Notes: generated by a model not told the origin, from the sequence alone. A DNA stretch of 64,000 nucleotides from Acidobacteriota bacterium (GCA_016213735.1 JACQZU010000012.1:62001-126000); one strand, 5' to 3'. Counted from the stretch's first letter, positions 15,894 through 23,178 are shown. Program-made: numbers and translations.

Positions 15894-17279
<1,386 letters not shown>

Positions 17280-17355
17280 GGGTTTTCCCGGCAAAGGATC
17301 CAGTATGCCGGGAGCCGGCGCGGACCCCAACGCCCCCCTCGCGGCGCGCGGGGGC

Positions 17356-17607
17356 TCAATCGCCCGCGCGGATCCTGCGCAGGGCCGCTTCCAGCGCGGC
17401 ATGGGACCCGGGAGGGGTCTCACTGGGAAGGCCCAGGGCGCGTTTCGCGAAGCCCGGCAGGTGCCGGAGCCCGTCCACGAAGGCGTGGCACGCGCGGCAC
17501 AGGAGCAGGTGCAGGCGGATCCCCAGGCGGGCCCGGAGGCCCAGCTGCCCCTCGAGGTAGTCGGTGGCGCGCTCCTGGACGCTCTGGCAGGTGGGCATCA
17601 GGCTCAT
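17356..17607 (-). CDS. Zinc-finger (zf-HC2-like) anti-sigma factor
   Basis: An 83-residue protein with Cys7, His33, Cys37 and Cys40, an H-x3-C-x2-C zinc motif (HLLLCRAC) of the ZAS/zf-HC2 anti-sigma fold. There is no transmembrane segment, so it would be a soluble cytoplasmic anti-sigma factor. Its ATG overlaps the stop of the ECF sigma gene by four bases (ATGA), a sign of coupled, stoichiometric synthesis. By analogy with other ZAS proteins it may release the sigma factor on a redox or metal signal; that is inference. It is the last gene of the RiPP/YceI/sigma cluster. Confidence 0.8.
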   Translation of the reverse strand: MSLMPTCQSVQERATDYLEGQLGLRARLGIRLHLLLCRACHAFVDGLRHLPGFAKRALGLPSETPPGSHAALEAALRRIRAGD

Positions 17608-18221
17608 GGACGGCCTCCCCGGCAATGGTCCCGCAGGCGGGCCTGCAGGGTGGTCCGCGCCCGGTGGAGGCGCTGTCGGACCGCGGCGGGGCTGATCCCC
17701 AGATGGCGGGCGATGGCCTCGCTGTCCCAGTCCTCCAGGTCCTTCAGCACGAAGACGGCCCGGACGCCGTCGGGCAGCGTTTCCAGGGCCTGCAGGAACA
17801 GCTCCCGGATCTCCCGGCGCTCCGCCAGCCCGTGGGCCTCGGCTTCCACGTGCCAGGGGACGGCTCCGGGCGCTTCCAGGTGGTGTCCGCGGCTGTCGAA
17901 GGGTCCGATCGCCGGTTCTTCCCTCTGCTCCCGCTCCCGCACCCGGACGCGGCTGCGGCGCACCATGAGGGCGGCGTTGAGGCAGACCCTGTAGCCCCAG
18001 CTGCTGAAGCGGCTCCGCCCCTCGAAGCGGGGCAGCTCCCGGTGGATGGCGATCAGCGCTTCCTGGAGGGCGTCCTCGGCGTCCATGGGGTCGCCCAGGA
18101 TGCGCAGGATCCCGTGGTGGAAGAGACCCAGGTGGGGTTTCACCAGGGCCTCGAAGGCGTCGGCATCGCCCGCCACCGCGCGCGCGATCAGTTCGTCCTC
18201 GGCGTCCGGAGGGGAAGGCAT
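17604..18221 (-). CDS. ECF-type RNA polymerase sigma factor
   Basis: A 205-residue sigma-70 family protein. Region 2 spans about residues 10-90, including FHHGILRILGDPMDAEDALQEAL and RFSSWGYRVCLNAA. Region 4 lies at about 140-200 with the helix-turn-helix segment DWDSEAIARHLGISPAAVRQRLHRART. There is an extended His/Glu-rich linker between them. It lies 47 bases after the yceI gene and overlaps its anti-sigma gene by four bases. The gene order suggests it controls the HvfA-type cluster upstream, and perhaps the copper response more widely; direct promoter evidence is lacking. Confidence 0.92.
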   Translation of the reverse strand: MPSPPDAEDELIARAVAGDADAFEALVKPHLGLFHHGILRILGDPMDAEDALQEALIAIHRELPRFEGRSRFSSWGYRVCLNAALMVRRSRVRVREREQREEPAIGPFDSRGHHLEAPGAVPWHVEAEAHGLAERREIRELFLQALETLPDGVRAVFVLKDLEDWDSEAIARHLGISPAAVRQRLHRARTTLQARLRDHCRGGRP

Positions 18222-18268
18222 GCGGGGGCCAGTGTGGCCTGGACTCCGCGAGGGGGCAAGGCTCGGGG

Positions 18269-18874
18269 CTACTTGCGGGAAGCTCCCCGGGGGGCAGGCT
18301 TGGCCTCCTCGAAGGAACCCACCAGCAACAGTTCCAGATCCACCTGTTTCTTGAGGCTGATCTTGGCGGCGACGCTCTCGGCCCCGATCCCGAAATCCAG
18401 GCGGTCCAGGGGCAGGGCGGCCCGGTAGGACCAGGTGGGAACCCCCGCGCCATTCACCCCCTCGGCGGCCGTGAAGGGAAGCTCCAGTTCCCGGGAGACC
18501 CCATGCAGGTCCAGGGTTCCCCGGACCAGGACCTTGTTCCCTTCCCTCCGGGCGCTGGTCGAGGTGAAGGTGATCCGTGGGAAGGTCGAGGCCCCGAAGA
18601 AATCCGGGGATCGCAGATGCTCGTCCCTGGCCCCGTTGGAGGTGTTGACGGAGCGGGTTTCGAGTTCCACCCGGATCCGCGCGCCTTCCAGGGTGGCGGG
18701 GTCCCCCGAGATGTCCACCTTGTACCGGTCGAAGCGCCCCGGCACATCGAAGAGAAGGGTGGAGGCCCTGAATCCAAGGACGGTGTGATTGCGGTCCACG
18801 CGGAAGACGCGGGCCTGGGCGGCCAGGGGGGACACCAGGAGCAAGGCCGGCGCGAACCAGCGGAAAGGGTGCAT
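18269..18874 (-). CDS. YceI family periplasmic protein
   Basis: A 201-residue protein with a signal peptide (about 1-20, ending PLAAQA). It has the YceI lipocalin-like barrel pattern: FRVDRNHTVLGFRAS, GRFDRYKVDISGDPATL, SVNTSNGARDEHLRSPDFFGASTFPRI and the LVRGTLDLHGVSRELELPF block. YceI proteins bind isoprenoid quinones or other hydrophobic ligands in the periplasm. Here the gene sits between the DUF2063 partner gene (11 bases downstream of it) and the sigma factor. Published HvfA-type clusters often hold a DoxX-like membrane protein as fourth member; a YceI protein in that place is a variation. Its link to the RiPP is inferred from operon position. Confidence 0.9.
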   Translation of the reverse strand: MHPFRWFAPALLLVSPLAAQARVFRVDRNHTVLGFRASTLLFDVPGRFDRYKVDISGDPATLEGARIRVELETRSVNTSNGARDEHLRSPDFFGASTFPRITFTSTSARREGNKVLVRGTLDLHGVSRELELPFTAAEGVNGAGVPTWSYRAALPLDRLDFGIGAESVAAKISLKKQVDLELLLVGSFEEAKPAPRGASRK

Positions 18875-18885
18875 GGGGTTCTCCT

Positions 18886-19593
18886 TCAGGAAGGCCGGAA
18901 ACCTGCCACGGCACCTTGGGTGCGCAGGTCCCGGAGGAGGATGAGGATGGCCTCGAGGTCGGGGAGTCCCACCGTCTCGGCGGCCTGGGCGATGGAGGCG
19001 TGCTGGGCTTCCAGCAGCAGGGCCTGGGTGGCGGGAGTGAGTTCGAGGAAGCGGCCCTCCCCCTCCGGGCCGCGGTAGGCCAGGAGGCAGGCGGCTCCGG
19101 GCTCGGGAAGGGGCGCGTCCACGGTGCACCGGTGCACCGCGTGGGCGTAGGCCACGAGCTGCGCCGCGGGGCCCAGGACGAGGCGGGCTCCGGGGGTGGG
19201 TTCCTCGGTGAGACCCTCGGGGGGCGGCTCGTCGGGATGGCGTTCCACCAGGACCTCCAGGATTTCGGCGTGGGCCAGTTCGGCGAGGAAGGGCCAGCGT
19301 TCCCGGCCCCAGCCCGTGGCGTGGAGCCAGCCGAGAAAGGCCGGGGCGATGTCGCGGTAGTGGGGGCTTGGAAGGCAGCGGGCCGCGAGGAAGCCGTCCA
19401 CGGCCTCCTCCCAGGCACCCGCCTCCTCGAGCAGGGCGCGGGTCACGGGGAAGACGCTCTCCAGGGGATCCGCGAGGCCGCTTCGGACGAGGCTTCGGTA
19501 GATCTCCGCGGCCTCCCAGGGGACATCCGTCTCCCCTTCCGGATCCAGGATGCGGGCGGCGAAGGCCCTCTGAAGCTCCAGCAGCTCAGGCAT
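18886..19593 (-). CDS. hvfC: DUF2063/HvfC-type partner protein of MNIO enzyme
   Basis: A 235-residue protein with the N-terminal DUF2063 signature: LELQRAFAARILDP at the start, IYRSLVRSGLADPLESVFPVTRALL, then a helical region and LGWLHATGWGRERWPFLAELAHAE. In MNIO systems this protein forms a complex with the DUF692 enzyme and helps present the precursor peptide. Its ATG lies inside the end of the DUF692 gene (8-base overlap), so the two are translationally coupled. Symbol given by family and context, not by a database hit. Confidence 0.85.
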   Translation of the reverse strand: MPELLELQRAFAARILDPEGETDVPWEAAEIYRSLVRSGLADPLESVFPVTRALLEEAGAWEEAVDGFLAARCLPSPHYRDIAPAFLGWLHATGWGRERWPFLAELAHAEILEVLVERHPDEPPPEGLTEEPTPGARLVLGPAAQLVAYAHAVHRCTVDAPLPEPGAACLLAYRGPEGEGRFLELTPATQALLLEAQHASIAQAAETVGLPDLEAILILLRDLRTQGAVAGFRPS

Positions 19594-20449
19594 GGCCCAC
19601 CGCCTCGGGGAGGGCGAGCCCGGCCCGGGCGGCGTCGTAGGCCGCCTGGAGGTGCCGGCGCTCGGCCAGGAGGAGGTCCAGGGAGGGAATCTCCTGGTCG
19701 CGCTCGAGGAGCACGGGCACGGGACGCCCGATCCGCTGCAGCGTCCACTGCATCAGGTCCACCACCGGGTCCGCCACCGGGGCGCCGTGGGTGTCCAGGA
19801 TGCGCCCGCCGTGAGGGGTGTGGCCTGCGATGTGCATCTGGCGCACCCGGTGCAGGGGCATGCGCTCCAGCCAGGCCCGCGCATCGAAGCCGAAGTTGCA
19901 GGCGTTGACGTACACGTTGTTGAGGTCCAGGAGCCAGCCCACGTCCGCGGATTCGAGCACCTCCGTCAGGAATGCACCTTCGTCCATGTCGCCGGGGGCG
20001 AGCTCGGCGTAGTAGGTGATGTTCTCCAGAATCAGGGGCACCGGCAGTCGCGCCTGCAGCTCCCGGGCCCGTCCGGCGGCGTGCCGCGCGGCTTCCCGCG
20101 TGAAGGGCAGGGGCAGCAGTTCGTGGAGGCAGGACCCGTCCACCGAGGTGAAGCACAGGTGTTCCGAGTGCCAAGGGGCCCCCGTCCTGTCGAGCAGGCG
20201 GCCCAGTTCAGCCAGGTAGCCGCCGGGGAAGGGATCGAAGCCCCCGAGGGAGATGGCCAGGCCGTGGGTGAGTACCGGGTCCCGGTCCAGGACGGTCAGG
20301 GCGTCGCGGTGGCGGCGGCCCCCTTCTCCCAGGACGTTCTCCGGGCAGATCTCCCAGAAGGGCAGGTCCGGGAGGGGGGCCTGGGCGGCCAAGGCGAGGT
20401 GCGGGCCCCGGAGGCCCACCCCCACGCCCTGGAAACGATCCGCGTTCAT
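19586..20449 (-). CDS. hvfB: DUF692 multinuclear non-heme iron oxidase (HvfB/BufB-type)
   Basis: A 287-residue TIM-barrel iron enzyme. Conserved metal-ligand segments are visible: His62 (LTHGLAISLGG), SEHL at 95-98, the LENITYY block with Glu142, DLNNVYVN at 175-182, HIAGH at 206-210, DTHG at 219-222 and LERD at 248-251. These match the ligand pattern of the DUF692/MNIO family. Family members oxidise cysteines of precursor peptides, giving oxazolone plus thioamide in the HvfA and methanobactin systems. Start ATG at 20449 follows the precursor gene by 14 bases. This gene is the modifying enzyme of the cluster; the substrate is the Cys-repeat peptide upstream. Confidence 0.93.
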   Translation of the reverse strand: MNADRFQGVGVGLRGPHLALAAQAPLPDLPFWEICPENVLGEGGRRHRDALTVLDRDPVLTHGLAISLGGFDPFPGGYLAELGRLLDRTGAPWHSEHLCFTSVDGSCLHELLPLPFTREAARHAAGRARELQARLPVPLILENITYYAELAPGDMDEGAFLTEVLESADVGWLLDLNNVYVNACNFGFDARAWLERMPLHRVRQMHIAGHTPHGGRILDTHGAPVADPVVDLMQWTLQRIGRPVPVLLERDQEIPSLDLLLAERRHLQAAYDAARAGLALPEAVGHA

Positions 20450-20463
20450 GCCGGCTCTTCGCC

Positions 20464-20820
20464 TCAGCCCTGGCCCTTGTCGGCGTCCTTCTTCGGCTCG
20501 GGCTTGGCCGGGGCCTTGGTGCCGCAGCTTCCCTTCCCGCAGGAGCCCTCCTTGTGCTTTCCGTCCTTGGCCTTGGCCTTCTCCTTGCCGCAGGTGCCTT
20601 CCTTGGCCTTGGTGCCTTTGTCCTTGCCGCAGGAGCCTTCCGAGCCTTCCTTCTTGCCGCAGCTGCCTTCGGAGCCCTTGGTGCCGCACCCTCCCGCCAG
20701 CATCAAGGCGGAATCGCTGCCGGGGGAGGGGACGGGCGTGGCCCCGAGCTGGGCGGAGGAGCCGGCCGCCAGGGAGCCGGCGGTGAACAGGGTGGCGGCG
20801 CTGATGAGCTTGGTGATCAT
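20464..20820 (-). CDS. hvfA: HvfA-like precursor peptide with EGxCG repeats (copper-binding RiPP)
   Basis: A 118-residue low-complexity protein. The N-terminus looks like a signal peptide (about 1-23, ending SLAAGSSA). The rest is Lys/Gly/Glu/Cys-rich with four EGxCG motifs: EGSCG at 51-55, EGSCG at 61-65, EGTCG at 74-78 and EGSCG at 91-95. Two further Cys sit in GGCG (Cys45) and KGSCG (Cys99), so there are six Cys in all. HvfA of Haemophilus has EGKCG motifs whose Cys are converted by HvfB/HvfC and then bind copper. The gene has a strong ribosome site (AGGAGG, six bases upstream) and leads the operon. Modification at each Cys here is inference. Confidence 0.88.
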   Translation of the reverse strand: MITKLISAATLFTAGSLAAGSSAQLGATPVPSPGSDSALMLAGGCGTKGSEGSCGKKEGSEGSCGKDKGTKAKEGTCGKEKAKAKDGKHKEGSCGKGSCGTKAPAKPEPKKDADKGQG

Positions 20821-20985
20821 GCAATTCCTCCTGCGGCCAGAGCCGCTCTGAGGGGCCTCGCGGCCCGTGGGAAACCGGCCTTCCTCGGGATCCGAGGAGT
20901 GAGACGCGGTATCAGGTGACGGAACTGGGATGCGCCGGGAGGCCGTTGCGTGACGGACTTTATTCAGGCCAGGTGGGTCAGCTTT

Positions 20986-23178
20986 CTACAAGCTGCCCTT
21001 CAGGAATTCCCAGATCTTCCGGTACCAGGCCCAGGTCTGGTCCGGGGCCCGGGGGCCATGCGCCGCGCCGGGGACCAGGGCGAACTCCACGGCCTTCCCG
21101 GCCTTCTGGAAGGCGTCCAGGGCCTGGATGCTGTGCTGGGGATGCACGTTGTCGTCCAGGGTGCCGTGGAGCAGCAGCAGCCGGCCCTGGAGGCGGTCCG
21201 CCGCCTTGAGGACGCTGGTGCGGGCGTAGCCCTCGGGATTGTCCTTGGGCAGGCCCATGTAGCGTTCGGTGTAGACGCTGTCGTAGAGGTGCCAGTCCGT
21301 CACCGGGGCCCCGGCCACGCCGACCTTCCACTTGGTGGAGTGGGTGAGGGCGAAGGCACTCATGAAGCCGCCGTAGCTGGTGCCCATGATGGCGACCCGG
21401 CCCAGGTCGGCCCAGCCCTGCTGGCCCAGCCAGGCCACGCTGTCCTCCAGGTCGGCCAGTTCCTGCTCGCCCAGGCGGCGGTGGGCGGCGTGGGCGCTGG
21501 TGGAGCCATGGTTCGAGGCGCTGCGGGGGTCCACCGCGAAGACGACGTAGCCCTGCTGGGCCAGGAAGTGGGACAGCAGGTTTCCCCGCCCGAAGGCGTT
21601 CCGGACCGTGGGGGCGTGGGGCCCGCCGTAGACGGGCTGGACCACCGGATACTTCAGGGAGGAATCGAAGCCCGGGGGAAGGGTCAGCATCCCCTCCAGG
21701 GGCGCCCCGTCCCGGGCCTTCAGCTGGACGAACTTGACGGTCCCCAGGGCGAGCTGGGCGTAGGCGGGGCTCGCCCCTCCCCCCAGGTCCAGCAGCTTCT
21801 TGCCCTCCCGGGCCAGCACCGCGGTGGTGGGGGGGGTGGTGGCGTCGCTCCACTGGTCCAGGTAGAGGTCCAGGCTCTTGCCGAACTTGACCTGGTGCGT
21901 GCCCGCCCGGGCGCTCAGCCGCTCCAGGCGCGCGTTGGGTGCCTTGCCCTCCAGCGCCACGGAATAGAGGTCCAGCCCCAGGGGGCCGCGTTCGGTGCCC
22001 GAGAAGAGCAGGAGCGCCTTCTTGGCGTCCTTGGGCTTGGCGGGCTCCTCCACCCCGTGGATCTCGCGGACGTCCCAGGGGCCCTCCGTGACCTGGCGGA
22101 GGAGGGCGCCGTCCTCGGCGTGCCGGTAGGCGTGGCGGAAGCCGCTGCGGTCCGAGAGCCAGAGGAAGGAGCCGTCCTTCAGGAAGCGGGGCAGGGGCAG
22201 GCGGTCCTGCCAGGCCTTGCCCTGCTCCCGGAGGAGGCTCGCGCCCTTCGTTCCCTGGAAGCGCCACAGCTCCAGCCAGGACTGGATGCGGTCCTGGAAG
22301 GCGGCGACCAGGCGGTTTTTGGGATCCCAGCCCACCTGGACGATCAGGGTCTCCTGGCCCGGGTAGGGATTCTCCATCCAGGCCAGGGTGCCCTGGAGGT
22401 CCACCCTGCCGAGCCGCGCGACCGGGTTGGGATCGCCGGCCTTGGGGTAGCGGAGGGGCACCTGCTTCTGGGGCTGGCTCCGGTCGTCCATCAGCACGTG
22501 GGTGGGCACCTTGGAGATGTCCAGCTGCAGGAAGGCCAGCATCCGGGAGTCGGGACTCCACCAGAAGGCCCGCTTGTTCCCCCGGTCGTAGATCTCCTCC
22601 TCGTAGACCCAGTCCAGGCGGCCGTTGAGGCGCTCCTCGGCCCCGTCCCGGGTCAGGCGGATCTCCACGCCGCTCTCCAGTTCCAGGGCGTGGAGGTCGT
22701 TGGCCCTCAGGAAGGCGACCTTCTTCCCGTCGGGGCTGAACAGGGGTTCGTCCTTCGGCCGGCCGTCCCGGGTGAGCCGCCTGGCCTCCAGGGGCTGGAT
22801 CCGCACCAGGTAGAAGTCCCCTCCGAGGCTGGCCACGAAGGCGTCCATGGCCTCGTTCCAGGCGGGCCGCATCAGGGCGCGCTTGGCCTCCGCCTCCGGG
22901 GCCCCCTGCTTCACCAGGGCGTCGGCCACCGCATCCGCACCCAGGAAGGGCTTGCGCTCCCCGCTCCGGGCGTCCACCCGGGTCAGCGTGGCCTGGCCCT
23001 TCTCCACCCGCGTCTCCAGGAGTTGGTCCCCCGGCAGCCAGGCGTAGCGCGGCGGGGCCGGCAGGTAGTCCACCTTGCGCGTGGGGTGGTAGAGCGCCTC
23101 CAGGCTCAGCTTGCCGCCCTGGGCCAGCAGGGCAGGGACCGCGAAGAACAGGAGGGCGAGGGCCCGCAGCAGCATCAT
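20986..23178 (-). CDS. S9 family prolyl oligopeptidase / dipeptidyl peptidase IV-like
   Basis: A 730-residue secreted peptidase. A signal peptide covers about residues 1-20 (MMLLRALALLFFAVPALLAQ). An N-terminal beta-propeller (DPPIV_N-like, SPDGKKVAFL, WSPDSRMLAFL) is followed by the alpha/beta hydrolase domain. The nucleophile motif is MGTSYGGFMSAFA (near residue 600), with the downstream HGTLDDNVHPQHS carrying the catalytic Asp and GAAHGPRAP the catalytic His. The protein likely releases dipeptides after Pro or Ala in the periplasm. It lies upstream of the RiPP cluster on the same strand but is separated from hvfA by 165 bases, and is likely a separate unit. The plus-strand side faces the low-GC island. 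Confidence 0.92.
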   Translation of the reverse strand: MMLLRALALLFFAVPALLAQGGKLSLEALYHPTRKVDYLPAPPRYAWLPGDQLLETRVEKGQATLTRVDARSGERKPFLGADAVADALVKQGAPEAEAKRALMRPAWNEAMDAFVASLGGDFYLVRIQPLEARRLTRDGRPKDEPLFSPDGKKVAFLRANDLHALELESGVEIRLTRDGAEERLNGRLDWVYEEEIYDRGNKRAFWWSPDSRMLAFLQLDISKVPTHVLMDDRSQPQKQVPLRYPKAGDPNPVARLGRVDLQGTLAWMENPYPGQETLIVQVGWDPKNRLVAAFQDRIQSWLELWRFQGTKGASLLREQGKAWQDRLPLPRFLKDGSFLWLSDRSGFRHAYRHAEDGALLRQVTEGPWDVREIHGVEEPAKPKDAKKALLLFSGTERGPLGLDLYSVALEGKAPNARLERLSARAGTHQVKFGKSLDLYLDQWSDATTPPTTAVLAREGKKLLDLGGGASPAYAQLALGTVKFVQLKARDGAPLEGMLTLPPGFDSSLKYPVVQPVYGGPHAPTVRNAFGRGNLLSHFLAQQGYVVFAVDPRSASNHGSTSAHAAHRRLGEQELADLEDSVAWLGQQGWADLGRVAIMGTSYGGFMSAFALTHSTKWKVGVAGAPVTDWHLYDSVYTERYMGLPKDNPEGYARTSVLKAADRLQGRLLLLHGTLDDNVHPQHSIQALDAFQKAGKAVEFALVPGAAHGPRAPDQTWAWYRKIWEFLKGSL

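What the first reader, a model, noticed from the sequence alone, without database searches (positions are those of the whole stretch)
17356..20820. HvfA-type copper RiPP cluster with YceI and its own sigma/anti-sigma pair
The order precursor - DUF692 (MNIO) - DUF2063 - YceI - ECF sigma - zinc-finger anti-sigma, all on one strand with overlaps and short gaps, indicates one unit. The precursor has four EGxCG motifs like HvfA, in which MNIO enzymes turn Cys into oxazolone/thioamide that binds copper. A YceI protein occupies the place where a DoxX-like protein is often found, and regulation appears built in. I infer a periplasmic copper buffer, not proven.
Basis: partly seen in the sequence, partly recalled or inferred. 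Interest (0 to 1): 0.88.

Follow-up and report, generated by a model that had tools for sequence, protein, structure and literature searches.

The report
Copper-peptide operon with a lipid-binding partner
A soil or sediment bacterium (Acidobacteriota) carries a self-regulated set of genes that probably makes an exported copper-binding peptide together with a lipid-binding protein not previously tied to such peptides, hinting that these bacteria pair copper trapping with protection of the cell envelope from oxidative damage.

Summary
The six genes are really there, on the minus strand, in the order claimed, with overlaps or gaps of 47 nt or less. The cluster is a thiooxazole metallophore ("captophorin"/oxazolin/bufferin-like) RiPP operon. 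The HvfA chemistry has been reassigned in the literature from oxazolone/thioamide to 5-thiooxazole. The precursor is only HvfA-like: EG[S/T]CG instead of EGKCG, and below the HvfA model's cut-off.
Comparative evidence shows a real unit. Precursor-MNIO-DUF2063-YceI-sigma-zf recurs in 17 Holophagaceae loci, window included. A two-block, ECF-type promoter-like motif, GTCAC[A/G]-N15-GCA[C/T]C, precedes the precursor in 34 of 46 loci (0.01 expected). In sister genomes of one genus the same motif precedes a stand-alone YceI and the secreted methionine sulfoxide reductase MsrAB.
YceI in the DoxX slot is new to the papers I could search. It recurs in Melainabacteria with a distant YceI subfamily, and one genome there has both DoxX and YceI versions. 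Sigma control itself is not new (Caulobacter sigma-F, Haemophilus RpoE2).
I infer an envelope copper/oxidative-stress module: the peptide traps Cu(I) and YceI limits lipid peroxidation. Modification, copper binding and YceI's role are untested. Verdict: new variant of a known kind.

The parts
20928..20954 (-). ECF-type promoter-like motif GTCACG-N15-GCATCC, about 107 nt upstream of the precursor start codon
   Evidence: Same two-block motif, spacer exactly 15, upstream of the precursor in 34/46 Holophagaceae loci (0.01 expected); window site; one of two exact matches in the genome
20833..20846 (-). Hairpin GCGGC-TCTG-GCCGC directly 5' of the Shine-Dalgarno (AGGAGG, 20827-20832)
   Evidence: Hairpin+SD directly before the precursor in 36/50 loci, about 0.003 expected per 60 nt; GCGG/CCGC invariant and next pair C-G/A-U/G-C in an alignment of 17 sequences
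20464..20820 (-). RiPP precursor, 118 aa, signal-peptide-like N-terminus, four EG[S/T]CG motifs plus GGCG and KGSCG
   Evidence: NF050188 HvfA, E 5e-5, below cut-off; homologues with [D/E]GSCG repeats
19586..20449 (-). MNIO (DUF692, MbnB_TglH_ChrH) maturase, 287 aa
   Evidence: PF05114 276.7 bits; 3BWW E 1e-44; putative ligands invariant in 18 sequences
18886..19593 (-). DUF2063/PME1 partner protein (HvfC-like, RRE-type), 235 aa
   Evidence: PF09836 and PF22106 over cut-off; NF050145 HvfC 115.7 bits, cut-off 142
18269..18874 (-). YceI-family lipocalin with signal peptide, 201 aa, no Cys; sits where DoxX usually sits
   Evidence: PF04264 108.9 bits; solved YceI/polyisoprenoid-binding homologues, best E 3e-17
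17604..18221 (-). ECF RNA polymerase sigma factor, 205 aa
   Evidence: Sigma70_r2, Sigma70_r4_2; TIGR02937 98.6 bits
17356..17607 (-). Small (83 aa) zf-HC2 ZAS-type anti-sigma factor (HLLLCRAC), no transmembrane segment apparent
   Evidence: PF13490 28.1 bits, cut-off 22.2; HX3CX2C invariant in 26 homologues

Best explanation
A self-regulated thiooxazole-metallophore (captophorin) operon. The ECF sigma factor, held by the small zinc-finger anti-sigma factor, reads the GTCAC-N15-GCAYC promoter when the cell meets copper and/or thiol-oxidative stress (inferred). MNIO and its DUF2063 partner oxidise the Cys of the EG[S/T]CG repeats to 5-thiooxazoles (inferred from characterised relatives). The peptide is exported through its signal peptide and binds Cu(I) in the periplasm (inferred). 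YceI, made from the same transcript, carries an isoprenoid or quinone in the periplasm and limits lipid peroxidation caused by copper or oxidants, in the slot DoxX fills elsewhere (inferred from BcnA/YceI work). Shown here: gene content, conserved order, conserved promoter-like motif, and recurrence of the YceI link in a second phylum. Not shown: modification, metal, inducer, YceI ligand.
For: Families. Order precursor-MNIO-DUF2063-YceI-sigma-zf in 17 Holophagaceae loci including the window. MNIO ligand and catalytic positions invariant. [D/E]GSCG repeats in homologous precursors. Promoter-like motif 34/46 against 0.01 expected, only at spacer 15; exactly one site per genome in three Geothrix genomes, at the operon. 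Motif recurs before stand-alone YceI (0 mismatches in G070, 1 in G066) and before MsrAB in both genomes, loci not used to define it. YceI next to DUF2063 also in Melainabacteria with a different YceI subfamily. Literature: PMC13097082, PMC13419390 (5-thiooxazole), PMC3511200 (sigma-F), PMC7907618 (RpoE2 controls msrAB and the hvf-type cluster), PMC9113575 (YceI-type BcnA against lipid peroxyl radicals).
Against: x in EGxCG is Ser/Thr, and the MNIO lacks the second Arg and the Phe of Lys-Cys enzymes, so modification efficiency is unknown. Many Holophagaceae operons lack YceI (28 of 50 in the main Holophagaceae branch of the tree) or sigma, so neither is essential. The motif also occurs where no sigma is in cis, so another sigma must read it there. 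MsrAB of the window genome and of Geothrix lacks the motif. No direct evidence for copper. Haemophilus and Neisseria analogues respond to hypochlorite or other oxidants and Caulobacter's to Cr/Cd, so copper may not be the inducer.
Confidence: 0.7

Rival explanations
1. The core is an ordinary EGxCG captophorin operon; YceI is a passenger with a general envelope role and no direct link to the peptide.
For: YceI is absent from many otherwise similar operons; an FKBP isomerase occupies the same slot in one Geothrix clade; some operons end after DUF2063.
Against: The YceI link arose on well separated MNIO branches in two phyla; stand-alone operon-type YceI in G070 and G066 carries the same promoter-like motif.
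Confidence: 0.3
2. The system is mainly an envelope oxidant (HOCl/peroxide) defence, and copper is incidental: the thiooxazole peptide scavenges oxidants or other soft metals.
For: Regulon partners are Msr enzymes: MsrAB with the same motif in G070/G066; MsrA next to sigma in Melainabacteria; RpoE2 activates the hvf-type cluster with msrAB under HOCl (PMC7907618); sigma-F responds to Cr/Cd (PMC3511200).
Against: Characterised thiooxazole peptides bind copper, and bufferins improve growth under copper stress (PMC12452194, PMC13097082).
Confidence: 0.3
3. Methanobactin/HvfA-type oxazolone-thioamide chemistry.
For: MNIO superfamily; weak HvfA similarity.
Against: HvfA itself was reassigned to 5-thiooxazole; the partner is PME1/DUF2063, not MbnC; MbnB model scores only 38 bits against a cut-off of 325.
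Confidence: 0.05
4. The precursor is not modified and acts as a plain Cys-rich metal-binding peptide.
For: Ser/Thr replaces Lys; substrate-contact residues are altered in the window enzyme (GLRG-PH, ERD-Q).
Against: MNIO and partner are conserved and adjacent in nearly every homologous locus; R15A, R16A and F250A variants of FonB still install thiooxazole (PMC13097082); metal-ligand and catalytic positions intact.
Confidence: 0.08

Closest known systems
Oxazolin (hvfABC-hvfX) of Haemophilus influenzae and fontiphorin (fonABC): 'captophorins'
   Same: Secreted EGxCG-repeat precursor, MNIO and DUF2063/PME1 partner; sigma-controlled in Haemophilus (RpoE2 with a small cytoplasmic anti-sigma)
   Different: EG[S/T]CG instead of EGKCG; YceI instead of DoxX; sigma and ZAS anti-sigma inside the operon; Acidobacteriota; specificity residues changed
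Bufferin 1 operon CC3254-3257 with sigF-nrsF of Caulobacter
   Same: Precursor-MNIO-DUF2063-fourth gene with adjacent ECF sigma/anti-sigma genes
   Different: Precursor is DUF2282, fourth gene is DoxX, anti-sigma is the six-TM NrsF; here EGxCG, YceI and soluble zf-HC2
Neisseria SigE / Haemophilus RpoE2 regulons
   Same: ECF sigma controls an MNIO cluster together with msrAB; small cytoplasmic anti-sigma
   Different: There the sigma lies apart from the MNIO cluster; here it lies in it. MsrAB carries the motif only in one sister genus, not in the window genome
BcnA/LcoA lipocalin system (YceI family)
   Same: Periplasmic YceI lipocalin
   Different: BcnA is linked to cytochrome b561; no metallophore link reported in the papers found
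Methanobactin (mbnABC)
   Same: MNIO acting on Cys, copper-binding product
   Different: MbnC partner, oxazolone/thioamide chemistry

Membership tests
Captophorin / MNIO-PME1 BGC | MNIO (PF05114) with conserved metal ligands and catalytic Asp | tested here: met
   276.7 bits; H62, H97, E142, D175, H206, D219, H221, E249, D251 invariant in 18 sequences and aligned to the same residues in 3BWW
Captophorin / MNIO-PME1 BGC | DUF2063/PME1 partner next to the MNIO | tested here: met
   PF09836 and PF22106 over cut-off
Captophorin / MNIO-PME1 BGC | Cys-repeat precursor with signal peptide directly upstream | tested here: met
   118-aa ORF, hydrophobic N-terminus, four EG[S/T]CG; homologues in most Holophagaceae loci
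Captophorin / MNIO-PME1 BGC | 5-thiooxazole product that binds copper | not testable with these tools
   needs mass spectrometry/NMR
HvfA/oxazolin (EGKCG, Lys-Cys) subgroup | EGKCG motif with Lys before Cys | tested here: not met
   Ser/Thr at that place in the window precursor; EGKCG not among the commonest 40 pentamers in Holophagaceae precursors
HvfA/oxazolin (EGKCG, Lys-Cys) subgroup | NCBIfam HvfA equivalog cut-off | tested here: not met
   23.8 bits against 95
HvfA/oxazolin (EGKCG, Lys-Cys) subgroup | Arg-Arg and Phe250 specificity residues of the MNIO | tested here: not met
   window R14-G15 and Q252 (FonB positions from PMC13097082, mapped through the 3BWW alignment)
HvfA/oxazolin (EGKCG, Lys-Cys) subgroup | DoxX-like fourth gene | tested here: not met
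   YceI there instead; the genome's DoxX matches lie on other contigs
Bufferin 1 | DUF2282 precursor | tested here: not met
   no Pfam match for the precursor
Bufferin 1 | sigma factor with NrsF anti-sigma | tested here: not met
   sigma present; anti-sigma is zf-HC2, not NrsF
Methanobactin | MbnC partner and MbnB equivalog | tested here: not met
   partner is DUF2063; MbnB 38 bits against 325
ECF sigma with ZAS anti-sigma | HX3CX2C in a small soluble protein next to the sigma gene | tested here: met
   HLLLCRAC; invariant in 26 homologues

The most novel reading that the evidence does not exclude
YceI lipocalins are an alternative partner to DoxX in thiooxazole-metallophore operons, recruited at least twice (Acidobacteriota and Melainabacteria). 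With Msr enzymes under the same sigma factor they form an envelope-repair module in which the peptide removes Cu(I) and YceI quenches the lipid peroxyl radicals that copper makes.
Probability: 0.4. Interest if true: 0.65.

Novelty: new variant of a known kind. Interest (0 to 1): 0.5.

Why it matters
The role of the DoxX protein in these widespread copper-peptide operons is unknown. A lineage that uses YceI in the same slot, with one genome carrying both versions, suggests the fourth protein deals with membrane redox or lipid damage, and gives a direct swap test. The shared promoter-like motif before the operon, a stand-alone YceI and MsrAB in sister genomes also makes the stress logic of these peptides testable outside Pseudomonadota.

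Tried and rejected
DUF2063 alone and as an alignment against PDB sequences did not recover 3DEE or any relative. Rfam gave nothing in 17000-21200. The motif is not upstream of MsrAB in the window genome or in four Geothrix genomes, and is absent from the Melainabacteria loci tested. The trans sigma paralogues (about 50% identical, each next to a zf protein) carry no such motif. A genome-wide search with one mismatch gave 69 sites against 50 in the reversed control, so weak sites are uninterpretable. No terminator or sigma-70-type site was found between the anti-sigma and the PTR2 gene; that gene was excluded because other Holophagaceae have different neighbours there. Structure prediction was not used: the families are clear by sequence. 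Paper searches for YceI with DUF692 or DUF2063, and for MNIO with Acidobacteriota, returned none; the library covers open-licence papers only.

Full report
OBSERVATION. The window lies in a 3.59 Mb genome of 28 contigs whose named relatives are Geothrix and other Holophagaceae. On the minus strand between 20820 and 17356 lie a 118-aa Cys-repeat precursor, an MNIO (PF05114, 276.7 bits), a DUF2063/NGO1945_C protein, a YceI protein, an ECF sigma factor and an 83-aa zf-HC2 protein. Gaps are 47 nt or less and two gene pairs overlap. The precursor has four EG[S/T]CG motifs plus GGCG and KGSCG. The MNIO is the only PF05114 match in the genome.

CONSERVATION. PF05114 occurs in 46 of 77 Holophagaceae genomes and 114 of 396 Acidobacteriota genomes. 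I fetched up to about 12 kb around the Holophagaceae hits and mapped the six genes. The full order precursor-MNIO-DUF2063-YceI-sigma-zf occurs in 17 loci including the window. Three loci have sigma-zf without YceI (L075, L078, L080). Five have YceI without the operon-type sigma (L060, L068, L071, L074, L077). One Geothrix clade has an FKBP isomerase in the YceI slot (L048). Precursors in these loci keep a signal-peptide-like N-terminus and [D/E]GSCG repeats; in other genera the repeats are DGKCG/DHKCG or RRCAGVPRCG.

CHEMISTRY. In the MNIO alignment every putative metal ligand and the catalytic Asp are invariant and match 3BWW. Site-3 residues shown to be essential in HvfB (Asn175, Asp242, His244) correspond to conserved residues here. 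FonB residues Arg16 and Phe250, which shape selectivity for EGKCG, are Gly15 and Gln252 in the window enzyme. Ala variants at those FonB sites stay active, so altered selectivity, not loss of activity, is the reasonable reading. This part is inference; no product was seen.

REGULATION. GTCAC[A/G]-N15-GCA[C/T]C lies upstream of the precursor in 34 of 46 loci, 0.01 expected from dinucleotide shuffles, and at no other spacer from 8 to 24. The window copy is at 20928-20954, one of two exact matches in the genome. I saw the motif in these same sequences and many are close relatives, so the count overstates independence. Three checks help. In three Geothrix genomes TGTCACA-N15-GCACC occurs exactly once, at the operon. 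In G070, whose sigma-bearing operon lacks YceI, an exact copy lies 74 nt upstream of a stand-alone operon-type YceI; G066 has the orthologous site with one mismatch. In G070 and G066 exact copies precede the secreted MsrAB. MsrAB of the window genome and Geothrix lacks it. Some operons have the motif but no sigma in cis; the other Holophagaceae tested, not the window genome, hold a second sigma-zf pair about 50% identical, which may serve there. That the motif is an ECF promoter read by this sigma is inference. The anti-sigma keeps HX3CX2C in all 26 homologues and shows no membrane segment, suggesting a cytoplasmic thiol or zinc signal (inference), as for the small cytoplasmic anti-sigma of Haemophilus RpoE2.

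YCEI. DoxX follows DUF2063 in Verrucomicrobia and other Acidobacteriota loci, and no locus had both DoxX and YceI. YceI follows DUF2063 in Melainabacteria loci L130, L131, L144, L155 and L246. Genome G432 holds one DoxX-type and two YceI-type clusters. On the MNIO tree the YceI label needs 8 changes, at least 3 forced by well-supported branches. The Melainabacteria YceI form a separate clade far from Holophagaceae operon YceI, which group with four stand-alone copies and apart from the general paralogue (long branches, so placement is cautious). Repeated recruitment is thus likely. In L144/L155 the neighbourhood is MsrA - sigma - Cys-rich protein in the anti-sigma position (no Pfam match) - DUF1223 - precursor - MNIO - DUF2063 - YceI, followed in L155 by an AhpC/TSA protein.

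MECHANISM. YceI-type BcnA protects the envelope from lipid peroxyl radicals, probably through bound ubiquinone (PMC9113575). RpoE2 of Haemophilus controls MsrAB and the hvf-type cluster under HOCl (PMC7907618). Sigma-F of Caulobacter controls the bufferin operons and YedY (PMC3511200). With the motif data this points to an envelope stress module: peptide for Cu(I), YceI for lipids, Msr for proteins. The inducer and the metal are unproven.

NOVELTY. Known: captophorin/bufferin operons, sigma control, link to Msr. Not found in the papers searched: YceI as partner, a soluble ZAS anti-sigma inside the operon, EG[S/T]CG precursors of Holophagaceae. The landscape paper PMC12452194 mentions neither YceI nor Acidobacteriota in its main text and reports sigma genes in Buf1 but not Buf2 clusters; its supplementary tables could not be read. 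I rate it a new variant of a known kind.

Noticed in passing
L074 (G070) and L077 (G007): Clusters precursor - radical SAM/SPASM protein - MNIO - DUF2063 - (thioredoxin in L074) - YceI: a possible RiPP worked on by both a radical SAM enzyme and an MNIO.
   Followed up: partly
L061, L076, L081 (genus g9): MNIO-DUF2063 loci preceded by a different precursor type with RRCAGVPRCG-like repeats, lacking the GTCAC-N15-GCAYC motif.
   Followed up: no
window 20833-20846 and homologous 5' UTRs: A GCGGC-loop-GCCGC hairpin directly before the Shine-Dalgarno of the precursor in 36/50 loci, inner pair changing C-G/A-U/G-C; role unknown.
   Followed up: partly
G070 C1:1870496 and G066 C1:1466554 (L259, L253): Secreted MsrAB carries the same promoter-like motif as the precursor operon.
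   Followed up: yes
L144, L155 (Melainabacteria): MsrA, a sigma factor, a Cys-rich protein in the anti-sigma position (no Pfam match) and DUF1223 upstream of a YceI-type captophorin cluster.
   Followed up: partly
L130 4008-4929: Two tandem precursors before one MNIO, with SSCGEGSCG and KEGSCKGA repeats.
   Followed up: no
L045, L048-L052 and relatives (Geothrix): A secreted FKBP-type isomerase occupies the YceI/DoxX slot (Pfam-confirmed in L048).
   Followed up: no
L082 (G056): MNIO preceded by a membrane protein with a C-terminal GTSCGSASGTSCG...GGCGGGCGG tail, a TIGR04222-like layout by eye.
   Followed up: no
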